A program made the position numbers and the translations under genes. Below, piece after piece: positions 3,001-31,668 of a DNA stretch of 64,000 nt. This stretch comes from Acidisoma cellulosilyticum (GTDB lineage Bacteria; Pseudomonadota; Alphaproteobacteria; Acetobacterales; Acetobacteraceae), in the NCBI RefSeq assembly GCF_020621385.1, contig NZ_JAESVA010000009.1, positions 1-64,000 on the forward strand, read 5' to 3'. The notes beneath the pieces were generated by a model. The model did no database searches and was not told the origin of the DNA. It saw only the letters and a program-made list of their open reading frames with translations. The first letter of the stretch is position 1. Every line of letters starts with the position of its first letter.

Positions 3001-6000
3001 TTCCCTTGGCCTGAGCGGTGATCTTTATGCCGGGCTGCTGACGACGAGTGCGACGGGCACCGGCTTCTCATCCCTGGCTTTCACCATCACGGTCGGCGGG
3101 ACCACGGTCGTCAGCCAGAGCTTCACCTCGCTCGCGACGGCCAATGCGTATTTCACGAACCAGGCGCTTGACCTCGGTGCGGTGACGCAGACTGCCAACC
3201 TTGCCGTGACCGTCAGTTTCGACCTTGTCAGCACGACCGCATCGAGCGGCTTTGGCATCGACTATCTGCTGGGTGCGTCGGGCGGCAACGGCCCCCCGGT
3301 GATTGTCGCGCCCACGACCGCACAGGTCGTCCAAGGCAAGGCCGGCGCCATCAGCGGCGTCGCCGTCTCGGAATCCGGCAATACGACGGGCGAGACCTTC
3401 ACGGTCAAGCTGACCGACACGACGGGTTTGCTGAGCGCCACCGGAACGGGCATCACCGGCGCCGGCTCCAAGGCGTTGACGATTACGGGCTCGCTCACCC
3501 AGGTCAACGCGGACCTCGCGACCCTGACCACGACCGAGACCAGCGGCACGTCCGATACCATCACGCTCAATGCCACGGACAACAAGGGCGGCACCGCCAC
3601 CACCGCTGACATTGCCGTCGCGATCACCAATATTCCGCAGATCACCGCGCCCGGTTCGGCGGTCGTCGGCCTCAGCAAGCCGACCGCGATCAATGGCGTA
3701 TCGATCGCTGAAGCCAATGCATCCGCCGGCGAAACATTCACGGTCAGGCTGACCGATACCAACGGCGCCTTGTCGGCGACGGGATCGAACGTCAGCGGCA
3801 ATGGCAGCGCCGCGCTGCAGATCTCAGGGTCACTCGCCCAGGTCAATGCTGCCCTGGCGACGCTGAGCGATACAGACGCGACGGCGGCCGCCGACACGAT
3901 CACGATCAACGCGACGGATAGCATCGGCGGCGCCGCGACCGCTGCGAACATCGCTGTCACCATCGCGAACGGGCCGGTGATCACCGCGCCCACGGCCGTC
4001 ACGGTCGGCAAGGCTCAGCCCAATCCGGTGGCAGGGATCAGCCTGGCGGAAACCGGGGCGACGGCCGGAGAGACCTTTACGGTCAATCTGTCGGACAATA
4101 ACGGCCTGCTGGCCGCGACCGGCACTGGCGTTTCAGGCTCGGGTACTGCGGCTCTCACGATTGCGGGCACGCTGGCCCAGGTCAATGCCGCGCTCGCGAC
4201 GGTGACGGATAAGAACGGCACGGTGCAGGCCGATAACATCCTGATCACGGCCGTCGACAGCTTCGGCAATACGGCCGGCGATAAAACGGTTGCGGTCACG
4301 GTGAACGGGCCGCCCAGCATTTCGCAGTCCAGCGCTGTCACGGTTCATCAAGGCGTGACCACGGCGGTTTTCCTCAGCGTCTCGGAAAGCGGCGATACGA
4401 CCGGTGAGACCTTCACCGCGACGGTTGCCGATACAAGCGGCGTGCTGGCGGCGACCGGCACCGGTGTATCCGGCTCCGGCAGCCAAAGCGTGACGATCAC
4501 CGGATCGCTCAGCCAAATCGACAATGACCTGGCGACCCTGACGGTCAATGAGGCCGGCACGGCGTCGGATACGATTTCCGTCACGGTCGTCGACAGCTTT
4601 GGCAATGCGACCGGGCCGCAGAAGACGACCGTCACCGTCAATCCGACGCTGACGCCGGTCATCACCACGCCGGCCGGCGCTGCCGTCGGTCTGGCGAAGG
4701 CGACCCTCGTGTCGGGGCTGAGCCTGGCGGAGACGGGCGCGCGCGCCGGCGAGACCTTCACCGTCACCGTCTCCGACACCAATGGCGTGCTGTCGGCTAC
4801 GGGCGCGAGCGTGAGTTTCAGCGGCACCAGCCTGACGATCCAAGGCTCGCTCGCTCAGGTCAACGCGGATCTGGCAACGCTGACCGACACCGACACCAAT
4901 CCGGCCGCCGATACGCTGTCGGTCACCGCGTCCGATTCCTTCGGCAATATCGCGGCCCCCGCCTCGACGGCCATCACCGTCGCCAATGATCCCGTCATTG
5001 CGGCACCCAGCACGCTGGTCGTCGGTGTCGACCAGCCTGTTTCCGTCGCAGGCGTCAGCATCTCGGAAAGCGGGGCCTCGGCCAGCGAGACCTTTACCGT
5101 GACCGCGTCCGACAACAATGGCCTACTGTCGGCGACCGGCACCGGCGTGTCCGGTGCGGGGACATCGAGCCTCGCCATCACCGGCACGCTGGCCCAGGTG
5201 AATGCCGCGCTCGCGACATTGACGGATAAGAACGGCACGCAGCTTGACGACTCAATCGTGTTCGCGGCGACTGATGGGTTTGGCAATACGGCTGGCAGCC
5301 GCAGCACGGCCGTGACCGTGAATGGGGTGCCGTCTTATGACAGCTATCCCTCCTCCCTGGCGCTGCAACAGAACAAGCCTGAGCCTTTCTCGCTCGATAT
5401 CACTGAGTCGGGCGATACGACCGGCGAGACCTTTACGGCCGTGATATCGGACCAGTTCGGATTGCTCTCGGCCACCGGTAGCGGTGTCACCGGAAACAAC
5501 ACCACGACGCTGACCATTACCGGCTCGCTGTCCGACGTGCGGACCAGTCTCAATGCGCTGGTGGATACTGACGGCACGCCGGGCAAGGACGCGATCGTGC
5601 TGGCGCTGAAAGACGGCTTCGGCAATGTCGCCACCGACATCACGATCCCGATCACGGTCATAAGCAATCCGGTGATCGCCGCGCCGGCCTCCCTCAGCCT
5701 CGGGCAGGGACAGCCGGGTACGATTGCGGGCGTCAGCCTGTCCGAGCCCGGCGCCATTGCGGGCGAGACGTTTACCGTCACGGCATCCGACACGAATGGG
5801 TTGCTGTCCGCCACCGGCACGGGCGTATCCGATTCCGGCACCACAGCCATCACCATAGCCGGGACCTTGGCCGAGGTGAACGCGGCCCTGGCGACGCTGA
5901 CCGATACGGACGGGACCAGGCCTTCCGATACCATTACGCTTTCCGCCAAGGACAGCCTTGGGAATGACGCGACGGATGCGACGATCGGCGTGTCCGTGGC

Positions 6001-9000
6001 GGGTCTGCCGCAGATCACGGCGCCCGCCACGCTGATACTCGGCGTCGGACAGGCTGGTGCCGTCCCGGGGGTCAGCCTGTCGGAAGTCGGCGTGCTGTCC
6101 AACGAAACCTTTACCGTCAAGGTCTCGGACCTGCATGGCTTGCTTTCGGCCACCGGCACGGGCGTGTCCGGATCGGGCACGACCGCGGTTACGTTCACGG
6201 GGTCCCTGGCGCAGGTCAATGCCGGTCTTGCGACGCTGGGCGATAAGGACAGCACCACGCCTTCGGATAGCATCACGATCGATGCGAAGGACAGTTTCGG
6301 CAATACGGCGCCCGTGGCATCGATCGCCGTATCGGTCACCAATGACCCAGTGATTGCGGCGCCGGCGACGGCGACGATCGAGCAAGGCCAGGCGAGCCCG
6401 ATTATGGGCGTCAGCCTGTCCGAGGCCGGTGCGATCACGGGCGAGATTTTCACTGTGACGGTGTCGGATACGGACGGGTTGCTGTCGGCCACCGGCGCCG
6501 GCGTTTCCGGGGCGGGCACCACGGTGCTGACGCTCAAGGGTTCGCTGGCTGACGTGAATACCGACCTGGCATCGCTGACGGACAATGACAGCGCTGGGCC
6601 GAGCGACACCTTGACCATCGGCGCGAAGGACAGCTTCGGCAACAATGCTGCCCCGGCCCATATCAGTCTTACGGTGAATGAGCCGGCCGATCCGGTCTTT
6701 ACCGAGGCGGGCGATCCGCTGCCCGGAACGGTCACCGAGCAGATTCTGGATTTCGGCACGGTCGATCAGGGTGATGTCCTGGCCCCGATCGATCTGGCGC
6801 TTCTCAACGACAATGGCGTGCCAGGCGATAGTCTTTCCGGCAGTTACCTATACGCCGATGATCCCGCCTTTACCGTTGACGGCTTTTCCGATGTCCTCGG
6901 CCTGGCGGCCGGTGATCAGGAGAATTTCCTGTCGGTCAGGTTCAACACGGGAACCACCGGAACATTCTCTGAGACCATCGAGTTTGATGGAGACAGCACC
7001 AACGGTTCCGGCAGCAGTTTTGCGCTGTCGCCCCATTACCTGCTGATCGAAGGGACAGTGGTTGCGACCATGCCGACCGGTGGTGGCGGCACTGGCGGTG
7101 GCGGCACTGGCGGTGGCGGCACTGGTGGTGGCACGGGCGGCGGCACGGGTGGTGGCACTGGCGGCGGCACTGGCGGCGGCACTGGCGGCGGCACGGGTGG
7201 TGGAACCGGTGGTGGCACTGGCGGCGGCACGGGTGGTGGCACGGGTGGTGGCACGGGCGGCGGCACGGGTGGTGGCACGGGTGGTGGCACTGGCGGCGGC
7301 ACGGGTGGTGGTACCGGCGGCGGCACGGGTGGTGGAACCGGTGGTGGCACTGGCGGCGGCACAGGTGGTGGAACCGGCGGCGGCCCGAGCGGCGGCGGTT
7401 CTGGCGGTAGCCCGCCGGGGCCGAGCGGTGGTGGTGCGGGTGACACGCACATCACGACATTCGACGGCCTGCACTACGACTTCCAGGCCGCGGGCGAATT
7501 CGTCTTCGCGCAGAATGCCGACATCATAGTACAGGTTCGTCTTGAACCGACCGGCGGACCGCAGAACCCGTCTGGCAGCGTCACCTTTATCGAGCAGACC
7601 GCGATCGGTCTTGGCAGCGATCGTCTCACCTTCGACTTCTCGCGGGCACAGCCCTTCTGGCTCAACGGAGCGCCTGTCACCCTTATCTCGGGGCAATTCC
7701 TGCCTTTGGCGGTCGGCACCGTCTATGCGACGTCAAGCGGCTTCGTCGTGGAAGCAAATACCGGTGAAGAGGTAAAAATCGGCAACGAAAACACCTCTGT
7801 CATTCTGGGTGGCCATACGACGGGCGTCAGCGGCCTCCTCGGCACCGCGGATGGTACGGATCCGCAGAATCTCACACTGCCGGATGGTACTGTCCTGCCC
7901 ACGACGCTGACTTCGGACGAACTCTATAAAACCTACGCCGACGCCTGGCGCGTGACGCAGGCGACGTCTCTGTTCGACTATGGCGTGGGACAGACGACGG
8001 CCACCTACACCATCCCGAACTTCCCGCTGACGCCGGTGACGCTTGCAGACTTGCCGACCGCGCTTGTTCAGCAGGCGACGGAGTATGTGGAGTCTCTCGG
8101 CATCACCAATGCGACGCAGCAGCAGGATGCGGTGCTCGACTACCTGTTGGCCGCCGGCAGCCAGACAGCGATCGACAGCGATATCGCCAATACCACGGCG
8201 GGTACATCCACTTCGACGTTGCAGGTGACCAGCCCGCCGGTCGAGCTGGTCGGCGTCACCGGCCCGATCGGGCCTGTCAGCATCGGTTCCGGCAAGGTCA
8301 ACGTCACGTTCCAGGTGTTCCTGAACAACCCGAGCGATAAGCCGGTCGTGGTGACCTATGCCGTCGTCGGCGGGTCTTCGCCGGCCCAACTCGGCGCGGC
8401 CGATTTTGGCGGCACTTTGCCCAGTGGTTCGGTCACGGTCGCGGCGGGTGCGACGATGGCCAGCATCACAATCGCGGTGCCGGGCAATCTGCGACTGCCG
8501 GTGGAAACGCTGCAACTCGCCATTGCGACGGCAACGACGGGCGTCACTCTCGCGAATGCGACGGGGGCGGCGACGCTGGACAGCAGCCTGCCCATCGAAG
8601 GGTCTGACGCCCTGCCGAGTTTCGAGCAGATCTCCGGCCCTGGCGCGTTCACGCAGGACGGGACGGCCTATACGCTGAACCTTGGTACGATTGGTGCCGA
8701 CGGCGTCGACGCGATGAATTTGGCGATCGCCAATTTCGCGGCGGGATACGCGAATATGCTCGGCGGCACATTCGCCACCACGACCGGCAGCGGGTTCACC
8801 ATCGTCACGCCCACCGTGACCGGCCTGACGCCGGGTGGTGTCGCAGGCGGCCTGACCGTGACGGCGGGCACGTCCCTCGGCGTGCATACCGAGATCCTGA
8901 CCTTCAACCCGACGCAAACCAATAGCAGCGGCTATTCGGGGACGCTGGCGCCGATCACCCTGACGATCATGGACAATGTCGTCTCGCCGATCGCGCAGGC

Positions 9001-10933
9001 GGCGGCGACGCCCAAGGTCATCACCTTCGATGCCCGCGTGGATGGCGGGTCGACCGGCAGCCTGACCGTCGCCAATACCTCGCCGATCGGCAGCGACTCC
9101 CTCGGCGTCGTGCTGACCGATAGTGGGGGTCATGTCCTGCCGACGCAAACCACGCCGCTGGCGCCGGGCGCCTCGGCCACCTTGTCGCTCAACAGTCTTG
9201 CGACGACGAGCGGCACCTTCACCGATACGCTCAATATCGCCTATACCTCGGTGCCGCCGTCCAGCACCGGTCATCCGACGGTGGCGGAGACGGGCAGCAG
9301 CGTGACGCTGAACGGGACCGTATATCTGGCGGCAGACCCGACCCTGAATACGACGATCTTCAATTTCGGCACGGTCCATCAAGGCGACGCCGAGACCAGC
9401 CAGATCATCTCGCTCACCAATGCCGTGGCGTCGGGCGCGCTGTCGGACGAACTCCTGGCGAGCATTGCCGCAATGCCGAGAGGGATCTTTGCCACCAGCG
9501 ACCAACAGGTAACGATCGACCCTGGGGAGACGACCAGCCCGGGCGCTATCGGCCTCGATACCTCGATCGCGGGTGTGGTGGACGGCAATGTGACGCTGCG
9601 GCTGACGACGCATGACGCAGCACAGCCGGATGCGACGCTTGGCACCTTGAACGTCAAGGTCGAGGGGACCGTCATCGGTGACGCGATCCCCGCCTTTGTC
9701 GAAGTCTCGGGCCCGGGTTCGCTCAGCGGCGCGCCGGGTCAGGACCAGATACTCAATCTGGGATCGATTGTCGTAAAATCCGCTGCTCAGACCATCAAGA
9801 TCGCTGTCTCCAATGCCGCCTCGGGGATCGCGGATTCCCTGAGCGGGTCCTTGTCCTATACGTCGCTCGGCGTCACCCAATCGCTCGGGGATATTCCGAC
9901 ACTCGCGCCTGGCGACGAATCCGGCATCTACGAATTTACGATCTCGCCGACGGCCGAAGGCCAGATACAGGACGTCATCACGCTGACACCGATCGATAGC
10001 GTGCTGGGTGCGCTGCCGATCCAGACGTTGACGATTGAGGGCGATGTGATCGCCTGCTTCCTGCGCGGCACGCATATCGCCACGCCGGACGGCGAGCAGA
10101 GGGTGGAGAGCCTGCGCATCGGCGATCTGGTGACGACCTTGTCCGGAAGACCGGAACCCATCCGCTGGATCGGGCGGCGCAGCTATAATGGGCGGTTCAT
10201 CCGCAGGAACCGCGACGTCCTGCCCATTTGCATCCAAGCGGGCGCCTTGGCGGATGGCATTCCCGGCCGGGATCTGTGGGTGTCGCCCTTGCATGCGATG
10301 CTGATTGACGATGTCCTGGTGGCGGCTTGCGATCTGGTCAACGGCAAGACGATCCTCCGCGGCGACCTGGCCGAGAGTGTCGAGTATGTCCATATCGAGC
10401 TCACGCGGCATGACGTGCTGCTCGCCGAAGGCGCGGCGTCCGAGAGTTTCGTGGACGACGACAGCCGCATGATGTTCCATAACGCCCATGAATATGCGGC
10501 GCTTTACCCTGACGCGAAGCGGGTGCCGGCCGTCTATTGCGCGCCACGCGTGACGGACGGCTTTGCTCTGGCGGCGATCCGTCATCGGCTGGATGTGCGT
10601 GCCGGACTGCGGCCGGATGTGGCGGCAGAGCCCTTGCGCGGCTATCTCGACCTCATGGAGGAAGGCTTGGTCGCGGGATGGGCGCAAAACCCGCTGCGGA
10701 GCGACGTGCCGGTCTGTCTCGATATCCTGGTCGATGGCGTGCTGATCGCGCAGACCCTGGCCAATCAGCACCGTCCGGATCTGGCGGACGCTGGGTTCGG
10801 GCGCGGCGATAACGGCTTCTCATTGACGCTGCCGATACCGCTGACACCGTCGCAGATGGCGCGGATTGAAGTGCGACGCTCATCGGATCAAGCGATCCTG
10901 CCGCGCTCGTCCAATTTGATGCAAGTTGCCTAG
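2..10933 (+). CDS. Giant repetitive surface adhesin with vWD-like and C-terminal Hint domains (5' partial)
   Basis: The reading frame is open from the left edge, so the N-terminus and any secretion signal are missing; over 3,640 residues remain. In order: Gly/Ala/Thr-rich GGAGG blocks (to about 2,700); an anchor-like segment (2,760-3,290); ten cadherin-like repeats of about 112 residues (3,295-6,676), each with an ETFTV...LLSATGTGVSG core; a choice-of-anchor segment (6,690-7,075); a GGGT linker (7,078-7,390); a von Willebrand D-like segment beginning DTHITTFDGLHYDFQ (7,440-8,000); a Calx-beta-like segment; choice-of-anchor D segments; a Hint_2 domain starting at the Cys codon 10,055 (CFLRGTHIATPDGEQ); and a final GW-like module. 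Inference: a secreted cell-surface or matrix adhesin processed near the Hint domain. Glycosyltransferase genes follow directly. Architecture is clear; function is inferred. Confidence 0.9.
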   Translation, partial: GRGQNSAGGGAGAGSTLTNAANGSTTGGTLYLTQNASGGSGGYGGTTGAGGAGGAATSTLSLDDLTANPTAAAFLYGLTTANGGAGGTGTTAGKAGAANTAVTLTGGGAVTGRGYADGGAGGAATGTTDGAVGGTAKSTVASTSTTTGSASTYAHAFTRGGAGGSGRYYSNAENGGAGGAATGTYATATSTTATGGAATANANAMGGVGGGGAGAGNAGGAGGLASKVTATATGFNATAIVTQTGGSGGRGYSGAAGGAGVASTLTNAATASTTGGNLSLTQTAGGGSGGYGATLGGLAGAATSNLTFDDTTNATHASYLYGRSVANAGSGGQSHVGAGQAGATGTATLALTGASTVNGSLSASGGGGGAGATNGGAGGTAKGNGSAKTTSTSRIARETVTVSGGAGGSGSGTGQTGGAGGTASGTALATGHTAYASVTQNGGSGGRGQSGAAGGAGAASTLTNAVSGSTTGGSLYLTQNAGGGSGGYGGTTGAGGAGGAATSTLSFDDLTANPTAAASLTGLGTANGGAGGAGTTAGKAGAANTAITLTGAGSVIGRGYATAGAGGGGTGTANGAVGGTAASAVDSTSTTIGAASTYALANTSGGAGGAGGVYYGSTGNGGAGGAATGTYATATSADATAGVTSAMANATGGGGGSGSGAGKTGGAGGLASKTTATATGFNATATVAQTGGAGGRGYSGAAGGAGAASTLTNAATGLTGGGAMRLTQTASGGRGGYSAATDGAGGIATSNLTFDDTASATHASSLYGNSRAFGGNSGQSTTGAGGAGGAATAGVTLTGVNAVTATTTADGGAGLSGGATNSAGGAAAATAQAIATGLSISGTASATAAALGGTGGTTGHASAKATAETANGQLASAGSNSSGSSGLTQSTATTSGTGLLQGLVASAQVTTAGVDATQANVDFSGDTFSLGNQSIDSYASATGLPSSSFVSSVDGSAGNVAAIFGAPQAVTIGAGWQSGYYVSGGNGSQEFQNSITYSVDSLGLSGDLYAGLLTTSATGTGFSSLAFTITVGGTTVVSQSFTSLATANAYFTNQALDLGAVTQTANLAVTVSFDLVSTTASSGFGIDYLLGASGGNGPPVIVAPTTAQVVQGKAGAISGVAVSESGNTTGETFTVKLTDTTGLLSATGTGITGAGSKALTITGSLTQVNADLATLTTTETSGTSDTITLNATDNKGGTATTADIAVAITNIPQITAPGSAVVGLSKPTAINGVSIAEANASAGETFTVRLTDTNGALSATGSNVSGNGSAALQISGSLAQVNAALATLSDTDATAAADTITINATDSIGGAATAANIAVTIANGPVITAPTAVTVGKAQPNPVAGISLAETGATAGETFTVNLSDNNGLLAATGTGVSGSGTAALTIAGTLAQVNAALATVTDKNGTVQADNILITAVDSFGNTAGDKTVAVTVNGPPSISQSSAVTVHQGVTTAVFLSVSESGDTTGETFTATVADTSGVLAATGTGVSGSGSQSVTITGSLSQIDNDLATLTVNEAGTASDTISVTVVDSFGNATGPQKTTVTVNPTLTPVITTPAGAAVGLAKATLVSGLSLAETGARAGETFTVTVSDTNGVLSATGASVSFSGTSLTIQGSLAQVNADLATLTDTDTNPAADTLSVTASDSFGNIAAPASTAITVANDPVIAAPSTLVVGVDQPVSVAGVSISESGASASETFTVTASDNNGLLSATGTGVSGAGTSSLAITGTLAQVNAALATLTDKNGTQLDDSIVFAATDGFGNTAGSRSTAVTVNGVPSYDSYPSSLALQQNKPEPFSLDITESGDTTGETFTAVISDQFGLLSATGSGVTGNNTTTLTITGSLSDVRTSLNALVDTDGTPGKDAIVLALKDGFGNVATDITIPITVISNPVIAAPASLSLGQGQPGTIAGVSLSEPGAIAGETFTVTASDTNGLLSATGTGVSDSGTTAITIAGTLAEVNAALATLTDTDGTRPSDTITLSAKDSLGNDATDATIGVSVAGLPQITAPATLILGVGQAGAVPGVSLSEVGVLSNETFTVKVSDLHGLLSATGTGVSGSGTTAVTFTGSLAQVNAGLATLGDKDSTTPSDSITIDAKDSFGNTAPVASIAVSVTNDPVIAAPATATIEQGQASPIMGVSLSEAGAITGEIFTVTVSDTDGLLSATGAGVSGAGTTVLTLKGSLADVNTDLASLTDNDSAGPSDTLTIGAKDSFGNNAAPAHISLTVNEPADPVFTEAGDPLPGTVTEQILDFGTVDQGDVLAPIDLALLNDNGVPGDSLSGSYLYADDPAFTVDGFSDVLGLAAGDQENFLSVRFNTGTTGTFSETIEFDGDSTNGSGSSFALSPHYLLIEGTVVATMPTGGGGTGGGGTGGGGTGGGTGGGTGGGTGGGTGGGTGGGTGGGTGGGTGGGTGGGTGGGTGGGTGGGTGGGTGGGTGGGTGGGTGGGTGGGTGGGTGGGTGGGPSGGGSGGSPPGPSGGGAGDTHITTFDGLHYDFQAAGEFVFAQNADIIVQVRLEPTGGPQNPSGSVTFIEQTAIGLGSDRLTFDFSRAQPFWLNGAPVTLISGQFLPLAVGTVYATSSGFVVEANTGEEVKIGNENTSVILGGHTTGVSGLLGTADGTDPQNLTLPDGTVLPTTLTSDELYKTYADAWRVTQATSLFDYGVGQTTATYTIPNFPLTPVTLADLPTALVQQATEYVESLGITNATQQQDAVLDYLLAAGSQTAIDSDIANTTAGTSTSTLQVTSPPVELVGVTGPIGPVSIGSGKVNVTFQVFLNNPSDKPVVVTYAVVGGSSPAQLGAADFGGTLPSGSVTVAAGATMASITIAVPGNLRLPVETLQLAIATATTGVTLANATGAATLDSSLPIEGSDALPSFEQISGPGAFTQDGTAYTLNLGTIGADGVDAMNLAIANFAAGYANMLGGTFATTTGSGFTIVTPTVTGLTPGGVAGGLTVTAGTSLGVHTEILTFNPTQTNSSGYSGTLAPITLTIMDNVVSPIAQAAATPKVITFDARVDGGSTGSLTVANTSPIGSDSLGVVLTDSGGHVLPTQTTPLAPGASATLSLNSLATTSGTFTDTLNIAYTSVPPSSTGHPTVAETGSSVTLNGTVYLAADPTLNTTIFNFGTVHQGDAETSQIISLTNAVASGALSDELLASIAAMPRGIFATSDQQVTIDPGETTSPGAIGLDTSIAGVVDGNVTLRLTTHDAAQPDATLGTLNVKVEGTVIGDAIPAFVEVSGPGSLSGAPGQDQILNLGSIVVKSAAQTIKIAVSNAASGIADSLSGSLSYTSLGVTQSLGDIPTLAPGDESGIYEFTISPTAEGQIQDVITLTPIDSVLGALPIQTLTIEGDVIACFLRGTHIATPDGEQRVESLRIGDLVTTLSGRPEPIRWIGRRSYNGRFIRRNRDVLPICIQAGALADGIPGRDLWVSPLHAMLIDDVLVAACDLVNGKTILRGDLAESVEYVHIELTRHDVLLAEGAASESFVDDDSRMMFHNAHEYAALYPDAKRVPAVYCAPRVTDGFALAAIRHRLDVRAGLRPDVAAEPLRGYLDLMEEGLVAGWAQNPLRSDVPVCLDILVDGVLIAQTLANQHRPDLADAGFGRGDNGFSLTLPIPLTPSQMARIEVRRSSDQAILPRSSNLMQVA
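167..2700 (+). repeat. Large internal tandem repeat of about 1,335 bp in the adhesin gene
   Basis: The segment around LDDLTANPTAAA (about 167-230) recurs as FDDLTANPTAAA exactly 1,335 bp (445 codons) later at 1,502. The block with FDDT.NATHAS at 923 recurs at 2,261, an offset of 1,338 bp. The unit is therefore a supra-repeat of about 445 residues built from smaller GGAGG blocks. Nearly two copies are visible and the repeat continues past the left edge. The period is a multiple of three, so copy number can change without breaking the frame. Confidence 0.8.
7078..7390 (+). repeat. GGGT-coding minisatellite linker
   Basis: A 12-bp unit (GGTGGCACTGGC and synonymous variants) is repeated more than 20 times without interruption and encodes (Gly-Gly-Gly-Thr)n. 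It begins with three five-residue GGGGT units and ends in a Pro/Ser/Gly-rich tail. It lies between a choice-of-anchor segment and the vWD-like domain, so it looks like a flexible spacer. In-frame slippage would change its length between strains. On the other strand it reads as a meaningless Pro-Pro-Val frame. Confidence 0.9.
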
Positions 10934-12629
10934 TCCAAGAAAGCGGTCCGCGAAGAAGGCGGAGCCTGAAGCGGCTCCGACCTTTCGCGGGAAGATCGAA
11001 TGCGTGACAAGGGAGCGCGTCACCGGATGGGTGCATGACGCGCTCTCTGGCCAGTCCTGCGTCACGCTGCTGATCACGGCCAATGACAAGCTGCTGGCCC
11101 GTGTCCTGGCGGATCGGCCGAGACTGGACGTCCGGGATGCCGGGATCGGCGACGGTCGTTGCGGTTTTGATCTGGAGATCAAGGGGTTATCGCCCTTCGA
11201 AACCCATGTCATCGCCGTGCAGCGTGAAAGCGACATGGCCCATGTGGATTGCTCGCCGGTATTGCTGGAGCCGGTCAGTCAGTTCGACGCGGCTTTTCGC
11301 GCGCAATGCGCTGCCTTGCTCCGCGATGCGCCGGACGATGCGGGATTGACCGAACGCATCGATTTCCTCGCCGAGCAGGCGGAGGCGCTGATGCAGCAGC
11401 GCGCGCATCGCCGCAGTCGCCCCGTGGAACGCACGGCCCTGCGGCAGGTCAAATGGCGCTGGACAGGGTCAGGGCCGCAGGCCGGCGCAATGCGCCCGGA
11501 CCAATTATTGCCCCGAGCCCTGGTGATCGACGAGACTTTGCCGGTGCTGTCCCGCGACGCCGGGTCGAATGCCGTGCTGTCACATATGCGCTCGCTCCAG
11601 CGTCTTGGGTTCGAGGTCAATTTCGTGGCCACCGACATGGCGCGCGATACCACGGGCGTGCTGGATGATGCCGGTATCATCGGGTGTCATGCGCCCTGGC
11701 ATGGCTCCGTCGAGGAGGTATTGCGGCGCGAACACGGCAGCTTCGACCTTGTCTATCTGCACCGGGCGACGGTCGCGGCCTCCTATCTCGGTCTGGTCCG
11801 CCGGGAACAGCCCAGGGCCAGGGTCGTCTATAGCGTCGCCGACCTGCACCATCTGCGGTTCGCGCGGCAAGCGAGAGCCGAGGAACGCCCGGAAATGATG
11901 GCATTGGCGCGGCGGTTTCAGCTTGTGGAACTGCGCGCGGCGGCGGCGGTTGATGCGGTGATCACGCATTCAAGCCATGAAGCGGCGGTGTTGCGTCAGC
12001 ATGTGGATAGGGCGCAGATCCATGTCATCCCCTGGGCGGTTGCGCAGCAGCCGACAGAGGTGCCGTTCTCCGCCCGTCATGGGCTGGCTTTCATCGGTCA
12101 TTACGGTCATGCTCCGAATCTCGAAGCCGCGCGCTGGCTGGTCGACGAAATCATGCCGCGGATACATGCCAGCGACCCCGGTATTCCTTGTCTGCTCGCC
12201 GGCAGCAATATGCCGGATGATTTGCGGCGCGCGCGGCCGGGTGTGGAGGTGATCGGCCAGGTCGATTCCTTGTCCGCGGTCTTTGACCGCGTGCGGCTGA
12301 CGGTCGCACCGATGCTGTATGGCGCTGGGATCAAAGGCAAAGTGCTTGAGAGCCTGGCCTGGGGCGTGCCCTGTTCCTGCACACCGGTCGCGGCGGAAGG
12401 CCTGGACCTGCCGCCGAGCCTGGACTCCCTGGTATCGGTGGGTGTGGAGAATATCGCGGCCAATGCGATCCGGCTGCATCAGGACGAGGCGTTCAACCGC
12501 GCCTGTCGGGAGGCCGGGCTTTCCTACACGGCCGCGACCCTGTCGGAAGCGCGGATCGATGCCCTGATGCGCGACGCGGCTGGCCTGCCCACGGATCGCG
12601 CGACCGCGCTCGGCGCAGATCCCGGGTAA
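10926..12629 (+). CDS. Family 4/1-type glycosyltransferase with N-terminal GW-like module
   Basis: 567 residues from a TTG that overlaps the adhesin stop by 8 bases, suggesting translational coupling; no strong ribosome binding site is visible. Residues 20-118 form a module (VTGWVHDALSG...GIGDGRCGFDLEI) homologous to the last 95 residues of the adhesin. Residues 190 onward are a GT-B glycosyltransferase: LVIDETLPVLSRDAGSN at the start of the first Rossmann lobe and APMLYGAGIKGKVLESLAW near residue 465 in the sugar-nucleotide lobe, typical of Glyco_trans_1_4. It probably adds sugars to the neighbouring surface protein or a polysaccharide in the cytoplasm; the acceptor is unknown. Confidence 0.85.
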   Translation: MPSPRKRSAKKAEPEAAPTFRGKIECVTRERVTGWVHDALSGQSCVTLLITANDKLLARVLADRPRLDVRDAGIGDGRCGFDLEIKGLSPFETHVIAVQRESDMAHVDCSPVLLEPVSQFDAAFRAQCAALLRDAPDDAGLTERIDFLAEQAEALMQQRAHRRSRPVERTALRQVKWRWTGSGPQAGAMRPDQLLPRALVIDETLPVLSRDAGSNAVLSHMRSLQRLGFEVNFVATDMARDTTGVLDDAGIIGCHAPWHGSVEEVLRREHGSFDLVYLHRATVAASYLGLVRREQPRARVVYSVADLHHLRFARQARAEERPEMMALARRFQLVELRAAAAVDAVITHSSHEAAVLRQHVDRAQIHVIPWAVAQQPTEVPFSARHGLAFIGHYGHAPNLEAARWLVDEIMPRIHASDPGIPCLLAGSNMPDDLRRARPGVEVIGQVDSLSAVFDRVRLTVAPMLYGAGIKGKVLESLAWGVPCSCTPVAAEGLDLPPSLDSLVSVGVENIAANAIRLHQDEAFNRACREAGLSYTAATLSEARIDALMRDAAGLPTDRATALGADPG

Positions 12630-25549: not shown

Positions 25550-26659
25550 ATGGTCAAAATCACGCCTACCCGCCGTTCGGTTCTGCTGGGAGGGGCGGCG
25601 GCCGCCGGCACCGCCCTGATAGGCGGGCGCGGCGCTGAGGCCGCCAGCATGACGGTCGGCTTCATCTATGTCGGATCGAGAGACGATTTCGGCTATAACC
25701 AGTCCCATGCCGAAGGTGCGGCGGCGGTGCGCAAGATGCCCGGCCTGACGGTGGTGGAGCAGGAGCGCGTGCCCGAGACGGTGGCCTGCGCCAATGCCAT
25801 GGCCGGCATGGTGCATCTTGATGGTGCAACTCTGCTGTTCCCGACCTCCTACGGCTATTTCAATCCCTATATGCTGAAGGCGGCGAAGCAGAACCCCTCC
25901 GTCAACTACATGCATTGCGGCGGGCTTTGGGCGAAGGGCGATCCCCTCAACGCGCATTCCTATTTCGGCTATATCGATGAAGCCGTCTATGTTTCGGGCA
26001 TCGTCGCCGGGCATATGACGAAGTCCAAGAAGCTCGGCTTCGTGGCCGCCAAGCCCATTCCGCAGGTTCTGCGCAATATCAACGCCTTCCTTCTCGGCGC
26101 GCAATCGGTTGACCCGTCCATCACCATGCAGGTCATTTTCACCGGCGACTGGTTCATGCCGGTGCGCGAGGCGGAGGTGACGAACAGCCTGGCCGACCAG
26201 GGCGCGGATGTCATCACCTGCCATGTCGATAGCCCGAAGGTCGTGATCCAAACAGCGGAGAAGCGCGGCCTTTATACCTGCGGCTATCACACCGATCAGG
26301 CACCGCTGGCGCCGAAGGGCTATCTGACCGGCGCCGAGTGGAACTGGACCTATCTTTATCCGAAATGGATCACGGCGCTGCAGGCCGGCGGTAGCATGCC
26401 GAATTACATCCGCGGCGGCTTCAAGGAGAGTTTCATCAAAAGCTCCCCCTACGGCGCCATGGTGCCTGCCGCCGCCCGCACCCAGGCGGACGCCGCGCGG
26501 GCCGGCTTCACGGCCGGCAATTTCGCGATCTTCAAAGGCCCGCTCAAGGACAATAAGGGCAATACGGTCATCGCGGCCGGCACGGTGCTGGATGAGCATG
26601 ATCCGGTGCTGGAGAGCATGAGCTATCTGGTCGCCGGCGTTTCCGGCTCGGCGAGCTAA
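25550..26659 (+). CDS. BMP-family ABC transporter substrate-binding protein
   Basis: 369 residues with a twin-arginine-like signal (TRRSVLLGGAAAAGTALIGG, cleavage near residue 31). The mature part is a BMP/PnrA-type periplasmic binding protein: MTVGFIYVGSRDDFGYNQSH, LLFPTSYGYFNPYMLKAAK, YFGYIDEAVYVSGIVAGHM and ADVITCHVDSPKVVIQTAEK. Family members usually bind nucleosides or other nitrogenous bases. It is the first gene of an importer operon (two permeases, amidase, ATPase), so the ligand is probably the nitrogen compound degraded by the embedded amidase. Confidence 0.9.
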   Translation: MVKITPTRRSVLLGGAAAAGTALIGGRGAEAASMTVGFIYVGSRDDFGYNQSHAEGAAAVRKMPGLTVVEQERVPETVACANAMAGMVHLDGATLLFPTSYGYFNPYMLKAAKQNPSVNYMHCGGLWAKGDPLNAHSYFGYIDEAVYVSGIVAGHMTKSKKLGFVAAKPIPQVLRNINAFLLGAQSVDPSITMQVIFTGDWFMPVREAEVTNSLADQGADVITCHVDSPKVVIQTAEKRGLYTCGYHTDQAPLAPKGYLTGAEWNWTYLYPKWITALQAGGSMPNYIRGGFKESFIKSSPYGAMVPAAARTQADAARAGFTAGNFAIFKGPLKDNKGNTVIAAGTVLDEHDPVLESMSYLVAGVSGSAS

Positions 26660-26663
26660 GACC

Positions 26664-27734
26664 TTGGGCGGGTTCGCACGAGGCTCTCTGGGCGTCCTGC
26701 TGCCGCCCGTCCTGGCGGTTGTGGCAACCATGATCCTGTTTGCCGGGTTCCTGGCGGCGCAAGGGGTTGACCCCTTGACCGCTTATCGGCTGATCTGGCT
26801 TGGCGCTTTCGGCACCTGGTTCTCCTGGCAGGATAGTCTTGTGCGGGCCGCGCCCTTGTTGTTGACAGGCCTCTGCGTCGCTTTGCCGGCGCAGATGGGG
26901 CTGATGATTATCGGCGGCGAGGGCGCCTTCGTGCTCGGCGCGCTCGCGGCCGTCGCGGCTGGCCTGGCCGCCGGCAATCTCGGCCTGCCCGATATTCTGG
27001 TGCAGGTCATCATGGCCGCGGCCGGCATCTGTGCCGGTGGCGTGGTCATCGCGCTATGCGGTTTGCTGCGCTTCAAACGCGGCGTGAACGAGACGATTTC
27101 CTCCCTGCTATTTGCCTATATCGCCATCGCGGTGATGAACCAGATCATCGCCGGGCCGATGCGTGACCCCGGCAGCCTCAACCGTCCGGCGACGCGCACG
27201 CTGCCGGACAATCTGATGCTCGGCACCATTCCCGGTACCACCATCCATGTCGGGCTGATCTTTGGCATCATCGCCTGTCTGGCCGCCTATATCTGCGTCT
27301 ATTTCACGAAGTTCGGTTTCGCGGCGCGTATCGTCGGCGGCAATGCGCGCGCGGGTCGCGTGGTCGGTCTGCCGGTGGAACGGATGATCCTCGCCTTCTG
27401 CTTCGCGGCCGGCGGGGCTGCCGGATTGGGCGGTATGGTGGAAGTCGCGGCCGTGCAGGGCGCGGTGAGTTCCGATATCTCGACCGGTGCCGGCTATACC
27501 GGCATTCTGGTCGCCTTCCTGGCGCGGATGAATCCGCTGGCCATCATCCCGGTCGCCGTTCTGCTCGGCGGGCTGGATGCGGCAGGCGGATTGCTGCAGC
27601 AACGCCTCAACCTGCCGGATGCAACCATGCTTGTTCTGCGCGGCGTGCTTTTCGTCATGCTGCTGTCGGCTGATGCGCTGCAGGGGCGGCTGACGCGCTA
27701 CCTCGCGCCGCGCCGCCTGCCGGTGACCGTCTGA
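26664..27734 (+). CDS. ABC transporter permease (YufP/RbsC-like)
   Basis: 356 residues from a TTG four bases after the preceding stop; the ribosome binding site is weak, so coupling is likely. It has at least eight hydrophobic segments and the branched-chain/nucleoside-type permease signature (LMIIGGEGAFVLGALAAVAA; RFKRGVNETISSLLFAYIA, the EAA-like cytoplasmic loop with VGGNARAGRVVGLP). It forms the membrane channel together with the next gene, which it overlaps in TGATG. Confidence 0.9.
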   Translation: MGGFARGSLGVLLPPVLAVVATMILFAGFLAAQGVDPLTAYRLIWLGAFGTWFSWQDSLVRAAPLLLTGLCVALPAQMGLMIIGGEGAFVLGALAAVAAGLAAGNLGLPDILVQVIMAAAGICAGGVVIALCGLLRFKRGVNETISSLLFAYIAIAVMNQIIAGPMRDPGSLNRPATRTLPDNLMLGTIPGTTIHVGLIFGIIACLAAYICVYFTKFGFAARIVGGNARAGRVVGLPVERMILAFCFAAGGAAGLGGMVEVAAVQGAVSSDISTGAGYTGILVAFLARMNPLAIIPVAVLLGGLDAAGGLLQQRLNLPDATMLVLRGVLFVMLLSADALQGRLTRYLAPRRLPVTV

Positions 27735-28660
27735 TGGCGGCCGAGGCACTTGGCTGGTGGGGCGTGCCATTGGCCGTCGGCGCCGGCGCCATCCGTGTTT
27801 CCACGCCCTTCCTGTTCGTCAGCCTGGGCGAGGTGGTGACCGAGACATCGGGACGCATCAATCTGGGGCTGGAAGGCACGCTGGTGATGGGCGCGATGAG
27901 CGGCTATGCCATCAGCTTCTATACCGGCTCGCCTTGGCTGGGCGTGCTGGCGGCCGGCATCGTGGGCAGCCTGCTCGGTGCCCTGCATGCCGGCATCTGT
28001 TCGCTGCCGAAGGTCAATGACATCGCGGTCGGCATCGCCCTGCTGCTGTTCGGCACCGGCTTGGCTTTCTTCCTCGGCACGCCCTTCGTGGCCCCGCAGG
28101 CGCCGAACCTGCCCTCGATCCCGCTCGGGTTCTGGAGCGATGTGCCGCAGATCCAGGCAGCGCTGAAGGTCAATGTTCTGTTCTTCATCGGCGTGGCGGC
28201 GGCCCCCCTGCTCGCCTGGGCGCTGCGCAATACCGGTGTCGGGCTGATGATCCGCATGGTCGGCGACAATGCCGAGGCCGCGCGGGCCATGGGCTATTCG
28301 CCGCTCACGGTCCGGCTATGGGCGACCTGTTTCGGCGGGTTCATGGCCGGGGTCGGCGGGTCCTTCCTCTCCCTCTATTATCCCGGTAGCTGGAGCGAGG
28401 GATTGTCATCCGGCCAGGGCATCATCGCTGTGGCACTCGTCATCTTCGCACGCTGGCGGCCGATGTATTGCCTTTGGGCGTCACTACTCTTCGGCGGCGC
28501 GGGCGCGCTGGGACCAGCCTTGCAATCGGTCGGCATTTCCCAAGGCTATTACCTGTTCAACGCCGCGCCCTATGTGCTCACGCTTGTTATCATGATCATT
28601 GCCTGCTCTCCTGACCGCACGCTGGCCGGTGCGCCCGGCGAGTTGTCGATTACCAAATGA
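27734..28660 (+). CDS. ABC transporter permease (YufQ-like)
   Basis: 308 residues; the ATG overlaps the stop of the preceding permease. Hydrophobic segments alternate with LGEVVTETSGRINLGLEGTL near the start, a sequence typical of the second permease of BMP-type importers, and MVGDNAEAARAMGYSPLTVR as the loop that contacts the ATPase. It heterodimerises with the preceding gene product. The ATPase gene comes only after the intervening amidase gene. Confidence 0.9.
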   Translation: MAAEALGWWGVPLAVGAGAIRVSTPFLFVSLGEVVTETSGRINLGLEGTLVMGAMSGYAISFYTGSPWLGVLAAGIVGSLLGALHAGICSLPKVNDIAVGIALLLFGTGLAFFLGTPFVAPQAPNLPSIPLGFWSDVPQIQAALKVNVLFFIGVAAAPLLAWALRNTGVGLMIRMVGDNAEAARAMGYSPLTVRLWATCFGGFMAGVGGSFLSLYYPGSWSEGLSSGQGIIAVALVIFARWRPMYCLWASLLFGGAGALGPALQSVGISQGYYLFNAAPYVLTLVIMIIACSPDRTLAGAPGELSITK

Positions 28661-28676
28661 AGGAAGCCTTCTTTTT
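28659..28676 (+). terminator. Weak hairpin plus T5 between permease and amidase genes
   Basis: GAAGG-AAG-CCTTC followed at once by TTTTT, starting within the last codon of the permease. The stem is only five base pairs. It could act as a partial terminator or attenuator lowering expression of the downstream amidase and ATPase genes, or it may be chance. Confidence 0.3.
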
Positions 28677-28732
28677 GAAACAGGGTGCCCTGCGCAAAGA
28701 AGCAAAAACTTTCATTCCTCATGGAGCTTATC

Positions 28733-29407
28733 GTGATCATTAAAGCTGATCCTTATCCCTGGCCTTATGATGGCGTCATGTCGCCCGCCGACACCGCCTT
28801 GATCATCATCGATATGCAGATCGATTTCTGCGGCAAGGGCGGCTATGTCGACGCCATGGGCTATGATATCGCGCAGACCCAGGCGCCGATCGGACCGATC
28901 GGCAATGTGCTGACGGCGATGCGCGCGCGCGGCTATCACATCATCCATACCCGCGAAGGCCATCGGCCGGACCTGTCTGACCTTCCCGCCAATAAGCGCT
29001 GGCGGTCGCGCCAGATCGGCGCCGGCATCGGCGACCCCGGCCCCTGCGGGCGGATTCTGATCCGTGGCGAGCCGGGTTGGGAGATCATCCCCGAACTGGC
29101 ACCCTTGGAGGGCGAGCCGATCATCGACAAGCCGGGCAAGGGCAGTTTCTACGCGACCGATCTGGAACTGCTGCTGCGCGTGCGCGGCGTGCGCAATCTG
29201 ATCCTGACCGGCATCACCACCGATGTCTGCGTCCATACCACGATGCGGGACGCCAATGACCGAGGTTTCGAGTGCCTGCTGCTGGAGGATTGCTGTGCGG
29301 CGACGGATCGCGCCAATCATGATCACGCCGTCAAGATGATCAAGATGCAGGGTGGGGTCTTCGGCTCGGTCTCCAATTCCGTCGATTTTCTGGCAGGCAT
29401 GGCATGA
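28733..29407 (+). CDS. biuH: Biuret hydrolase-type cysteine amidase (isochorismatase superfamily)
   Basis: 224 residues from GTG 28,733, chosen because GGAG lies six bases before it; a longer GTG start 48 bases upstream lacks a site. The triad is visible: Asp27 (IDMQIDFC), Lys133 (DKPGKGSF), Cys166 ([15 protein letters not shown]), plus Gln206 (KMQGGVFGS). From memory, the Rhizobium leguminosarum biuret hydrolase has Asp36, Lys142, Cys175 and Gln215; the spacing is identical, and [25 protein letters not shown] and [10 protein letters not shown] also match. The reaction would be biuret to allophanate plus ammonia. It sits inside a nucleoside-type importer operon and overlaps the ATPase gene by four bases. 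The family is certain; biuret as the substrate is likely. Confidence 0.85.
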
Positions 29408-30912
29408 GCGACGCCCCGGGGCTTGAGGTTGTCGGCGTCACCAAGCGTTTCGGGGATTTCGCAGCGCTGAGCGACGTCTCCCTCAGGCTCCATCCCGGCA
29501 CGGTGCATGCGCTGTTGGGAGAGAACGGGGCCGGCAAATCGACGCTCGTGAAATGCATCATGGGTTTCTATCACGCCGATGCGGGCGAGTTGCTGCTGGA
29601 CGGGCGGGAGATCAAGGTCGGCAATCCGCGCGACGCGCAGCAGGCCGGCATCGGCATGGTCTATCAGCATTTCACGCTCGTGCCGTCGATGACGATTTTG
29701 GAAAATCTCACCATGGGCCTGGGCTTTCGTCCGGGGCGGATCGACTGGAAGGTGGAACGCGCCAAGCTGACGGCCTTCCTGGACACGATGCCCTTCCGCG
29801 TGCCGATCGACCGCCCGGTCTCGTCGCTCGCTGCCGGTGAAAAGCAGAAGGCGGAAATCCTCAAGCAGCTTTACCTGCAGGCCAAGCTGCTGATCCTCGA
29901 TGAGCCGACATCCGTGCTGACGCCGCAGGAAGCGGATGAGATGCTGGGCCTGATCCGTTCCATGGCGACGGCAGGCCAACTCACCGTCCTCATCATCACC
30001 CATAAATTCCGTGAAGTGCTGGCCTTCGCGGATGAGGTGACGGTGCTGCGGCGTGGCAAGCAGGTCGGCGGCGGCAAGGTTTCCGAATTGTCCGTGCCGG
30101 AAATGGCAAGGCTGATGGTGGGCGATCAGGCGAGCCGTGACCATGCCGGGCGAGAGGAACGCGAACCGGGTGAGGTGATGTTGGCGCTGACGGGCGTTCA
30201 GGCGCTGGACGATGCCGGGGGACCGGCCTTGCAGGGTGTCGATCTTACGGTACGGCGCGGCGAGATCGTCGGTATCGCTGGGGTCTCGGGCAATGGGCAG
30301 ACGGCATTGGTGGAGGTATTGGGCGGGCAGCGCCGGCATCAGGGCGCGGTGACGGTCGGCGGCGAGCCCTTCGGCGCCACGCGGGAGGAGATCGCCCGCC
30401 ACAATTTCGCGCTGCTGCCGGAGGAGCCGCTGCGCAATGCCTGCGTCGGCCGCATGAGCGTGGGCGAGAACATGGCTTTCCGCAGCTTCGACCGCGCGCC
30501 GATCGGCTCCGGCGTCTGGGTCAAGCGCGGTGCGCTTCGTCGCCATGCGCGGGACTTGGTGGAGCGCTACAATGTCCGCACCACGGGGATCGACGCCCCG
30601 ATCATGACACTGTCGGGCGGCAATGTGCAGCGCGCGGTGCTGGGGCGCGAATTGTCGGGTGAGGTTGACGTTCTGGTCTGCGCCAATCCGGTCTTCGGGC
30701 TCGATTTCTCGGCGGTCGCCGATATCCATGGGCAGATCGTCGCTGCCCGCAATCGCGGTGCCGCCGTGCTGCTGGTCAGCGAAGACCTTGATGAATTGCT
30801 GGAATTGGCAGACCGCATTCTGGTGATGTCGGGTGGTGCGATCGTCTATGAGACGAAGCGTGAGAGCGCGGACCGGCAATCCATCGGGTTGCATATGGCC
30901 GGTCATGCATAA
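29404..30912 (+). CDS. ABC transporter ATP-binding protein with two ATPase domains (YufO/RbsA-like)
   Basis: 502 residues; ATGA overlap with the amidase stop. The first ATPase domain has Walker A GENGAGKS (39-46), Q-loop [13 protein letters not shown], signature [14 protein letters not shown] and Walker [16 protein letters not shown]. The second domain, from about residue 260, has a degenerate Walker A ([16 protein letters not shown], no Lys) with [15 protein letters not shown], the usual arrangement in this tandem class. It energises the two-permease importer. It is the last importer gene before the GntR regulator. Confidence 0.92.
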
Positions 30913-30972
30913 CGACCATGCTTGACCCCGAGCTAAGAAGCGTCACCATAACGCCCCGATTGGCGTGAGGAC

Positions 30973-31668
30973 ATGGTGACGACGACGAGACTGGGGGGCG
31001 CTGCCGCCCTCGTTTATCAGGAACTGATGGCGGATATCGCGGATTTTCGTCTTCTGCCCGGCGACCGCTTTACCGAGACGGACCTGTCCCACCGCTTTGG
31101 CGCGTCGCGGACGCCCATCCGCGATGCGTTGCTGCAATTGAAGCGCGACGGTTTCGTCGATGTGCGCTTCCGCAGCGGCTGGTTCGTCTGTCCCTTCGAT
31201 TTCCAGCGGTTCGATGAGTTGTATGAACTGCGCATGACCCTGGAAGTCGCGGCTTTCGAGCGGCTGTCGCGCGCGGAGCCGGAGATCAGATTGGCGGCGC
31301 TCGACCATCTTGATGCCATTTGGATAATCGATGAAAGCGCGCGGGAGACGGAGCCGCGACGGATGACGGAGTTGGACGAGGGCTTTCATTCCGGCATCGT
31401 GGAAGCTGCCGGCAATCGTGAAATGGCCATCATCCATCGCGAGATCACGGAAAAGATCCGCATCATCCGGCGGCTGGATTTTTTTAAAGATGCCCGTACC
31501 GCCGCCACCTACCGCGAACACGGCGAGCTGCTGCGCCTGTTGCGGCGCGGCGCTTTGAGTGAGGCGATCATCATGTTGCGGGCACATATCGAGGCAAGCA
31601 AGCTGGAAGTCCGCAAGATCACGCTGCATATGATGCATGAAGCGCGTCTGGGTGCGACGAAGTCGTGA
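30973..31668 (+). CDS. GntR family regulator with FCD ligand domain
   Basis: 231 residues; GTGAGGAC precedes the ATG. The N-terminal winged helix (residues 10-75) reads LMADIADFRLLPGDRFTETD then RFGASRTPIRDALLQL. The helical FCD domain includes RMTLEVAAFERL, the metal-ligand-like ELDEGFHSGIVEAAGN and a REHGELLRLLRRG end. It most likely represses or activates the preceding importer/amidase operon in response to its substrate or product. Confidence 0.9.
   Translation: MVTTTRLGGAAALVYQELMADIADFRLLPGDRFTETDLSHRFGASRTPIRDALLQLKRDGFVDVRFRSGWFVCPFDFQRFDELYELRMTLEVAAFERLSRAEPEIRLAALDHLDAIWIIDESARETEPRRMTELDEGFHSGIVEAAGNREMAIIHREITEKIRIIRRLDFFKDARTAATYREHGELLRLLRRGALSEAIIMLRAHIEASKLEVRKITLHMMHEARLGATKS

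What the first reader, a model, noticed from the sequence alone, without database searches (positions are those of the whole stretch)
25550..31668. Biuret-hydrolase-type amidase embedded in a BMP-family ABC importer operon
The amidase matches the recalled biuret hydrolase spacing of Asp, Lys, Cys and Gln exactly and shares several long motifs. It sits between the permease and ATPase genes and overlaps the ATPase start. The importer belongs to the nucleoside (BMP) class, not the urea class, so this may be a biuret or related ureide uptake and degradation operon under its own GntR regulator. No allophanate hydrolase is in the window.
Basis: partly seen in the sequence, partly recalled or inferred. 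Interest (0 to 1): 0.7.

Follow-up and report, generated by a model that had tools for sequence, protein, structure and literature searches.

The report
Biuret uptake and breakdown operon
A common bacterial operon that probably imports biuret, a nitrogen-rich urea-fertiliser impurity, and breaks it down; the layout is already published, but the imported molecule is unproved and the import protein's binding pocket differs in a telling way from that of its purine-binding relatives.

Summary
Six same-strand genes at 25550-31668 encode a BMP-family binding protein (SBP), two permeases, a biuret hydrolase (BiuH), a double ATPase overlapping biuH by 4 bases, and a GntR/FCD regulator. BiuH passes the curated NCBIfam cut-off (412.8 bits; cut-off 370), is 76% identical to the Rhizobium 3841 enzyme and keeps its catalytic spacing. 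The layout is ordinary: 61 of 80 biuH loci examined have all four importer genes around biuH, R. johnstonii 3841 carries an expanded version, and a 2025 paper describes biuH beside bmpA-nupABC in nitrifiers. The missing step is in the same genome: an allophanate hydrolase (718 bits; cut-off 511), besides a triuret-hydrolase-like paralogue and a cyanuric acid hydrolase. What I add concerns the SBP. It is related to the guanine binder AtzT, but biuH-operon SBPs form one clade (74 rows, support 99) without the guanine-contacting Glu165 (0 of 74; Gln in 63); 46 other relatives have Glu165 in 41. Conversely, all 7 close SBP relatives found in 149 other genomes of the order (3 genera) lie within 3.2 kb of biuH. 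This favours biuret or a relative over a nucleoside. Ligand and regulation are untested.

The parts
25550..26659 (+). BMP-family substrate-binding protein with a twin-arginine-like signal (TRRSVLLGG)
   Evidence: PF02608 122.2 bits; closest solved sequences AtzT 6pi5 (E 3e-58) and 3s99 (E 5.5e-50); pocket Y45 S97 Y98 V139 Q165 N169 W194 H218 D220 in AtzT numbering; signal read by eye from the sequence
26664..27734 (+). permease A (TTG start), BPD_transp_2
   Evidence: PF02653 90.9 bits; 56% identical to the R. johnstonii pRL10 permease in the same place
27734..28660 (+). permease B, overlaps permease A by one base
   Evidence: PF02653 110.3 bits; 68% identical to the pRL10 permease
28721..29407 (+). 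biuret hydrolase BiuH (ATG start preferred; GTG 28685 is the longest reading)
   Evidence: NF050097 412.8 bits, cut-off 370; 76% identical to 3841 BiuH; Asp31, Lys137, Cys170 and Gln210 at identical spacing
29404..30912 (+). ABC ATPase with two nucleotide-binding domains; its ATG overlaps the biuH stop
   Evidence: PF00005, two stretches; 57% identical to the pRL10 ATPase
30973..31668 (+). GntR/FCD transcription regulator, 60 bases after the ATPase
   Evidence: PF00392 54.3 and PF07729 53.5 bits; kept after the ATPase in one same-genus genome (L004, same contig as L200; 383 bits)

Best explanation
A biuret scavenging operon. The periplasmic BMP-type protein captures biuret (possibly also triuret or cyanuric acid); the two permeases and the double ATPase import it; BiuH, a cysteine hydrolase, removes one ammonia to give allophanate; the allophanate hydrolase encoded elsewhere in the genome (C3) splits allophanate to ammonia and CO2. 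GntR/FCD probably switches the operon by a pathway metabolite. Shown by comparison: gene identities, BiuH family and catalytic residues, conserved linkage, allophanate hydrolase in the genome, altered binding pocket. Inferred: ligand, direction of transport, regulation, nitrogen-source role.
For: BiuH is above the curated equivalog cut-off, while the own-genome triuret-like paralogue (297.6 bits) falls below it. Of 80 biuH loci, 61 have SBP+permA+permB upstream and ATPase downstream on the same strand, and 65 have the ATPase as the next recognised gene. Independent direction: SBP relatives at E<=1e-60 in 150 genomes of the order occur in 7 besides the window's own; 7 of 7 (3 genera) lie within 3.2 kb of a biuH of 391-416 bits, 4 of 7 with an allophanate hydrolase-like gene beside them. 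R. johnstonii 3841 has formamidase, AtzD and a TrtA-like gene in the same run of genes. The own genome encodes AtzF (718 bits, cut-off 511), AtzD (453 bits, cut-off 360) and a TrtA-like enzyme. The SBP pocket separates biuH-linked from other relatives.
Against: No ligand, activity or growth data. 12 of 80 biuH loci lacked permease B upstream plus ATPase downstream: three end at a contig edge (L045, L046, L050), two have another order (L033, L074), one has the set on the other strand (L008), and six (L006, L020, L042, L043, L065, L071) show no part of this importer beside biuH. In the window's own family, 2 of 6 biuH loci (L201, L203), and one further class genome (L191), have no such SBP or permease beside biuH. 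The nearest solved relative with a stated ligand binds guanine and hydroxyatrazine (AtzT; passages). One BiuH-like gene (305 bits, G079, L192) sits beside a different BMP protein without the signature. The linked SBPs are one clade, so the pocket change may be a single event, not many independent ones.
Confidence: 0.85

Rival explanations
1. The importer mainly carries a precursor, not biuret itself (a variant of the best explanation, so the two odds overlap): cyanuric acid or triuret enters, is turned into biuret inside (AtzD on C14, TrtA-like on C1), and BiuH finishes.
For: AtzD (5 of 80) and TrtA-like (36 of 80) genes sit on the same strand within 5.5 kb of biuH in relatives; the own genome has both enzymes; an aromatic sandwich (Y45, W194) suits a flat ring.
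Against: In this genome AtzD lies on another contig beside its own BMP-type ABC set, and the TrtA-like gene is also elsewhere; 22 of 80 loci have only SBP-permA-permB-biuH-ATPase among the classes sought within 5.5 kb.
Confidence: 0.3
2. The transporter is a purine or nucleoside importer and biuH merely lies inside it.
For: BMP family name; 37% identity to AtzT over the query stretch, and AtzT binds guanine with KD about 110 nM (PMC6834077 passages). His218 and Asp220 of the window protein are shared with most unlinked relatives (43 and 45 of 46).
Against: Glu165, which contacts guanine, is Gln here and absent in 74 of 74 linked rows, while 41 of 46 unlinked rows keep it; Bradyrhizobium loci carry both types side by side; 7 of 7 close SBP relatives are biuH-linked.
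Confidence: 0.08
3. The amidase is another isochorismatase-like enzyme (triuret hydrolase, guanylurea hydrolase, RutB).
For: Same superfamily; TrtA-like paralogue 55% identical.
Against: NF050097 over cut-off; RutB 120 bits against a cut-off of 378; BiuH-type residues Y, Y, S, D, T at the positions where TrtA has F, N, A, E, Y (placed by motif in the sequences, window residues printed; residue list from PMC7948467 passages). Guanylurea hydrolase was not compared directly.
Confidence: 0.05

Closest known systems
biuH/atzD gene run of Rhizobium johnstonii (leguminosarum bv. viciae) 3841, plasmid pRL10
   Same: Same gene order SBP-permease-permease-biuH-ATPase; these proteins 56-76% identical
   Different: pRL10 also has formamidase, AtzD, a TrtA-like gene (annotated cysteine hydrolase) and a cupin in the run, and a GntR gene divergent upstream, 27% identical to the window's
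biuH with bmpA-nupABC in ammonia oxidisers (PMC12625717, passages)
   Same: biuH beside a BMP-type ABC importer; gntR is in the figure legend; proposed for triuret/biuret use
   Different: Nitrifiers; there with atzF, trtA or allFGHK on some of the same contigs; the paper calls the importer a nucleoside transporter
AtzT of Pseudomonas sp. ADP (6pi5)
   Same: BMP-type binding protein; Tyr45/Trp194 sandwich, Ser97 and Asn169 kept
   Different: Glu165 to Gln, Asn218 to His, Asn220 to Asp, Thr139 to Val in the window protein

Membership tests
Biuret hydrolase BiuH (NF050097) | Curated equivalog score over 370 bits | tested here: met
   412.8 bits
Biuret hydrolase BiuH (NF050097) | Catalytic Asp/Lys/Cys plus substrate Gln at BiuH spacing | tested here: met
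   31/137/170/210 against 36/142/175/215
Biuret hydrolase BiuH (NF050097) | Hydrolyses biuret to allophanate | not testable with these tools
   needs an assay
BMP-type ABC importer | PF02608 binding protein, two PF02653 permeases, one double ATPase | tested here: met
Urea importer UrtABCDE | Curated Urt scores; separate UrtD and UrtE ATPases | tested here: not met
   UrtB 22.6 bits against 250.3; UrtE 185.5 against 285.8; UrtD 164.6 against 304.1; a single 502-aa double ATPase
AtzT-like purine binder | Glu165 contacting guanine/triazine | tested here: not met
   Gln in the window protein; Glu in 0 of 74 linked rows
Putative B6 transporter (NF047927-NF047930) | Curated equivalog scores | tested here: not met
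   SBP 45.6 of 400, permease A 166.4 of 400, permease B 137.3 of 465, ATPase 407.5 of 670
Triuret hydrolase TrtA | F, N, A, E, Y at the discriminating positions (PMC7948467, passages) | tested here: not met
   window protein has Y, Y, S, D, T

The most novel reading that the evidence does not exclude
The biuH-operon BMP proteins are a dedicated receptor clade for biuret and close relatives, derived from a purine-type pocket in which Glu165 is lost (mostly to Gln) and Arg139-Gly169 of the common type is replaced (Asn169 in 74 of 74). If so, Q/S/T/I165 with N169 is a genome-readable mark of a biuret-class importer (H218 and D220 are shared with the purine type and do not discriminate), and 'nucleoside transporter' labels beside biuH, as in nitrifiers, are misassigned.
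Probability: 0.55. Interest if true: 0.45.

Novelty: new member of a known kind. Interest (0 to 1): 0.27.

Why it matters
Biuret is a plant-toxic impurity of urea fertiliser (abstract of PMC7700744). The hydrolase is known, but a proven biuret importer did not turn up: 'biuret transporter' returned 0 papers in this library, and the passages seen from the other searches show none; most subscription papers are not held. A pocket prediction resting on one or two residues makes the uptake step testable with one binding assay and would correct 'nucleoside importer' annotations next to biuH.

Tried and rejected
Urea-class importer: rejected by curated scores and by the double ATPase. Nucleoside or purine importer: made unlikely by the pocket comparison. 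TrtA or RutB identity for the window enzyme: rejected by scores and residues. PF02682 hits in the genome were a poor proxy for allophanate hydrolase and were replaced by TIGR02713. The C14 amidase beside AtzD is not an allophanate hydrolase by score (167.7 of 511). A shared neighbourhood for the TrtA-like gene was not found: none of 7 relatives' loci (one cut short at a contig end) showed a hit to its two own-genome neighbours, which I read by eye as an MBL-fold hydrolase and an iron alcohol dehydrogenase. In one search an offset slip printed the neighbour (G) of the first TrtA position; the F is read from the printed sequence. My first pocket read of L209-L212 failed because the wrong reading frame was picked; it was redone from longer stretches with phmmer. 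A paper cited as reference 54 of PMC12625717 (PMC6952224) is not held. No structure was predicted.

Rows dropped before the tree (15 of 135; their pockets): the C14 SBP and its copy L154; L151 (same gene as L146); L153 (the window itself); L147 (partial; E165/G169); L152 and L155 (distant BMP proteins of the own genome, no signature); L148 and L150 (signature-bearing, biuH-linked, represented by L190 and L077); sec_L109 (copy of Rl3841); L186, L187, L188 and L189 (their contig lengths equal those of L034, L010, L027 and L077); and L192 (a C14-type SBP beside a 305-bit BiuH-like gene, without the signature: a row against a universal rule). Two rows (the L008 opposite-strand set, and L007) were labelled linked by me after inspection, the first after its pocket had been seen.

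Full report
Observation. Six + strand genes occupy 25550-31668. Pfam places them as BMP binding protein, two BPD_transp_2 permeases, isochorismatase-fold amidase, double ABC ATPase and GntR/FCD regulator. Junctions are tight: 4 bases between SBP stop and permease A, a 1-base overlap of the two permeases, and a 4-base ATGA overlap of biuH and the ATPase. The amidase start is uncertain; ATG 28721 is preferred to GTG 28685.

Enzyme. NCBIfam NF050097 (biuret amidohydrolase) scores 412.8 bits against a cut-off of 370. The best PDB sequence matches are 'Putative amidase' entries 6azo, 5bk6, 6azs and 6azn (E 1e-119 to 2e-118) and 'Biuret hydrolase' 6xjm (E 1.2e-106). Identity to the R. johnstonii 3841 BiuH is 76%, with the same Asp/Lys/Cys/Gln spacing. 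That enzyme gives ammonia and allophanate (PMC5806882, passages).

Rest of the pathway. The genome (98.52% complete, 3.53% contamination by the tool's figures) has one at C3:711175-712857, 718 bits against 511. It also has cyanuric acid hydrolase AtzD on C14 (453.2 bits, cut-off 360) next to a second BMP-type ABC set and a deaminase-like amidohydrolase, and a TrtA-like paralogue on C1 (55% identical to the window BiuH, 57% to the second cysteine hydrolase of pRL10) with F, N, A, E, Y at the positions that PMC7948467 (passages) lists as separating TrtA from BiuH. So triuret or cyanuric acid to biuret to allophanate to ammonia is complete on paper, though scattered over contigs. The literature disagrees on 3841: PMC5806882 says there is no atzF near its biuH, PMC7948467 that its operon contains AtzF; I saw no AtzF-like hit in the 20.7 kb fetched (L109).

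How common. In 79 of 80 a separate biuH reading frame was scored; in L007 biuH and the ATPase are one open frame and it was not counted as a hit. 61 of 80 have SBP, permA and permB upstream and ATPase downstream; 67 of 80 have permB upstream and ATPase downstream; 65 of 80 have the ATPase as next recognised gene; 36 of 80 have a TrtA-like gene, 21 a formamidase, 9 an AtzF-like gene and 5 AtzD on the same strand within 5.5 kb. On plasmids, 42 of 589 matching records cover at least 80% of the operon at DNA level. R. johnstonii 3841 shows the expanded form. PMC12625717 (passages) reports biuH with bmpA-nupABC in ammonia-oxidising bacteria, comammox and archaea, with gntR in the figure legend. The layout is therefore already in print.

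Against. 12 of 80 loci lack permB upstream plus ATPase downstream: L045, L046 and L050 end at a contig edge, L033 and L074 have another order, L008 has the set on the other strand, and L006, L020, L042, L043, L065 and L071 show no part of this importer beside biuH. In the window's relatives 6 of 60 genomes have BiuH over cut-off, the window's own included, and two of these (L201, L203) show no such SBP or permease nearby; nor does L191 from another genome of the class.

Binding protein. Its nearest solved relatives by sequence are AtzT and 3s99 (I recall 3s99 as an adenine binder, which no call here showed). AtzT binds guanine (KD about 110 nM) and 2-hydroxyatrazine through Tyr45/Trp194 stacking, Ser97, Phe98 backbone, Glu165, Asn218 and Asn220 (PMC6834077, passages). 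In AtzT numbering the window protein reads Y45 S97 Y98 V139 Q165 N169 W194 H218 D220: the sandwich is kept, the guanine-contacting Glu is gone. Controls: the 30 loci handed out by an AtzT search of 115 genomes of the class and 5 BMP loci of the own genome were read. Of the 30, two carried the biuH-type pocket (L148, L150), and both lie 2.1-3.3 kb from biuH; of the 5, only the window protein itself did. Among second BMP proteins in the 80 loci, 16, of which 14 stand near Bradyrhizobium biuH operons, read W-S-F-R-E-G-W-H-D, the same as 3s99. In the pooled tree (120 rows after 15 drops, listed under Tried and rejected; quick method, SH-aLRT only) the 74 linked rows are one side of one branch (support 99); position 165 is Q 63, S 8, T 2, I 1, and position 169 is N 74; the 46 unlinked rows have E165 in 41, G169 in 40 and R139 in 40, while R139 is in 0 of 74 linked rows. 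H218 and D220 do not discriminate (74 of 74 linked; 43 and 45 of 46 unlinked). One unlinked row (L145) has N169 with Leu165 and is the nearest miss.

Reverse test. Searching the SBP, without reference to biuH, in 150 genomes of the order gave 7 besides the window's own at E<=1e-60; 7 of 7, from 3 genera, have a biuH (391-416 bits) within 3.2 kb, the order SBP-permA-permB-biuH-ATPase (a formamidase between in 2) and Q165/N169, and 4 of 7 have an allophanate hydrolase-like gene beside them.

Mechanism. Best reading: biuret is bound in the periplasm, imported at ATP cost, cut by BiuH to allophanate, and finished by the distant allophanate hydrolase; GntR/FCD likely senses a pathway metabolite. 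Ligand and regulation are inference. Triuret or cyanuric acid as the carried molecule is the main rival. Because the linked SBPs are one clade, the pocket change may be a single event; it shows a distinct group more than it proves the ligand.

Literature basis. Searches: 'biuret hydrolase' (14 papers); 'biuret'+'biuH'+'ABC transporter' (3); 'AtzT'+'periplasmic binding protein' (1); 'biuret transporter' (0); 'triuret'+'transporter' (22, 20 listed); 'cyanuric acid'+'biuret'+'substrate-binding protein' (1). I saw passages, not whole texts, of PMC5806882, PMC7948467, PMC12625717, PMC6834077, PMC6219798, PMC9800807 and PMC11945447; the other papers only in listings. Robinson 2018 on biuret hydrolases was seen only in a reference list.

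Verdict. The modest new point is the pocket signature of the importer.

Noticed in passing
G000 C1:6707-7384 and L193-L199: A TrtA-like enzyme is found in relatives that have no BiuH over cut-off (7 loci fetched), twice with an allophanate hydrolase-like gene beside it (L194, L197). What it does without BiuH is unclear.
   Followed up: partly
G000 C14:64602-74131 (L100): AtzD, a deaminase-like amidohydrolase, a second BMP-type ABC set and an amidase lie together, with a gene that I read by eye as LysR-type: perhaps a separate triazine or purine-ring uptake and opening cluster.
   Followed up: partly
L007:8980-11226: biuH and the ATPase form one uninterrupted 748-residue reading frame in a metagenome-assembled Rhizobiales genome: a fusion, or an assembly error at the usual overlap.
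   Followed up: no
window 233-10933: A 3566-residue open frame whose only Pfam match at E<=1e-8 is a Hint_2 domain near its C-terminus; followed by a glycosyltransferase-domain ORF at 10926-12629.
   Followed up: no
L192 (G079:C45): A BiuH-like gene of 305 bits stands before a different BMP-type ABC set whose binding protein lacks the pocket signature, perhaps a triuret or other ureide system.
   Followed up: no
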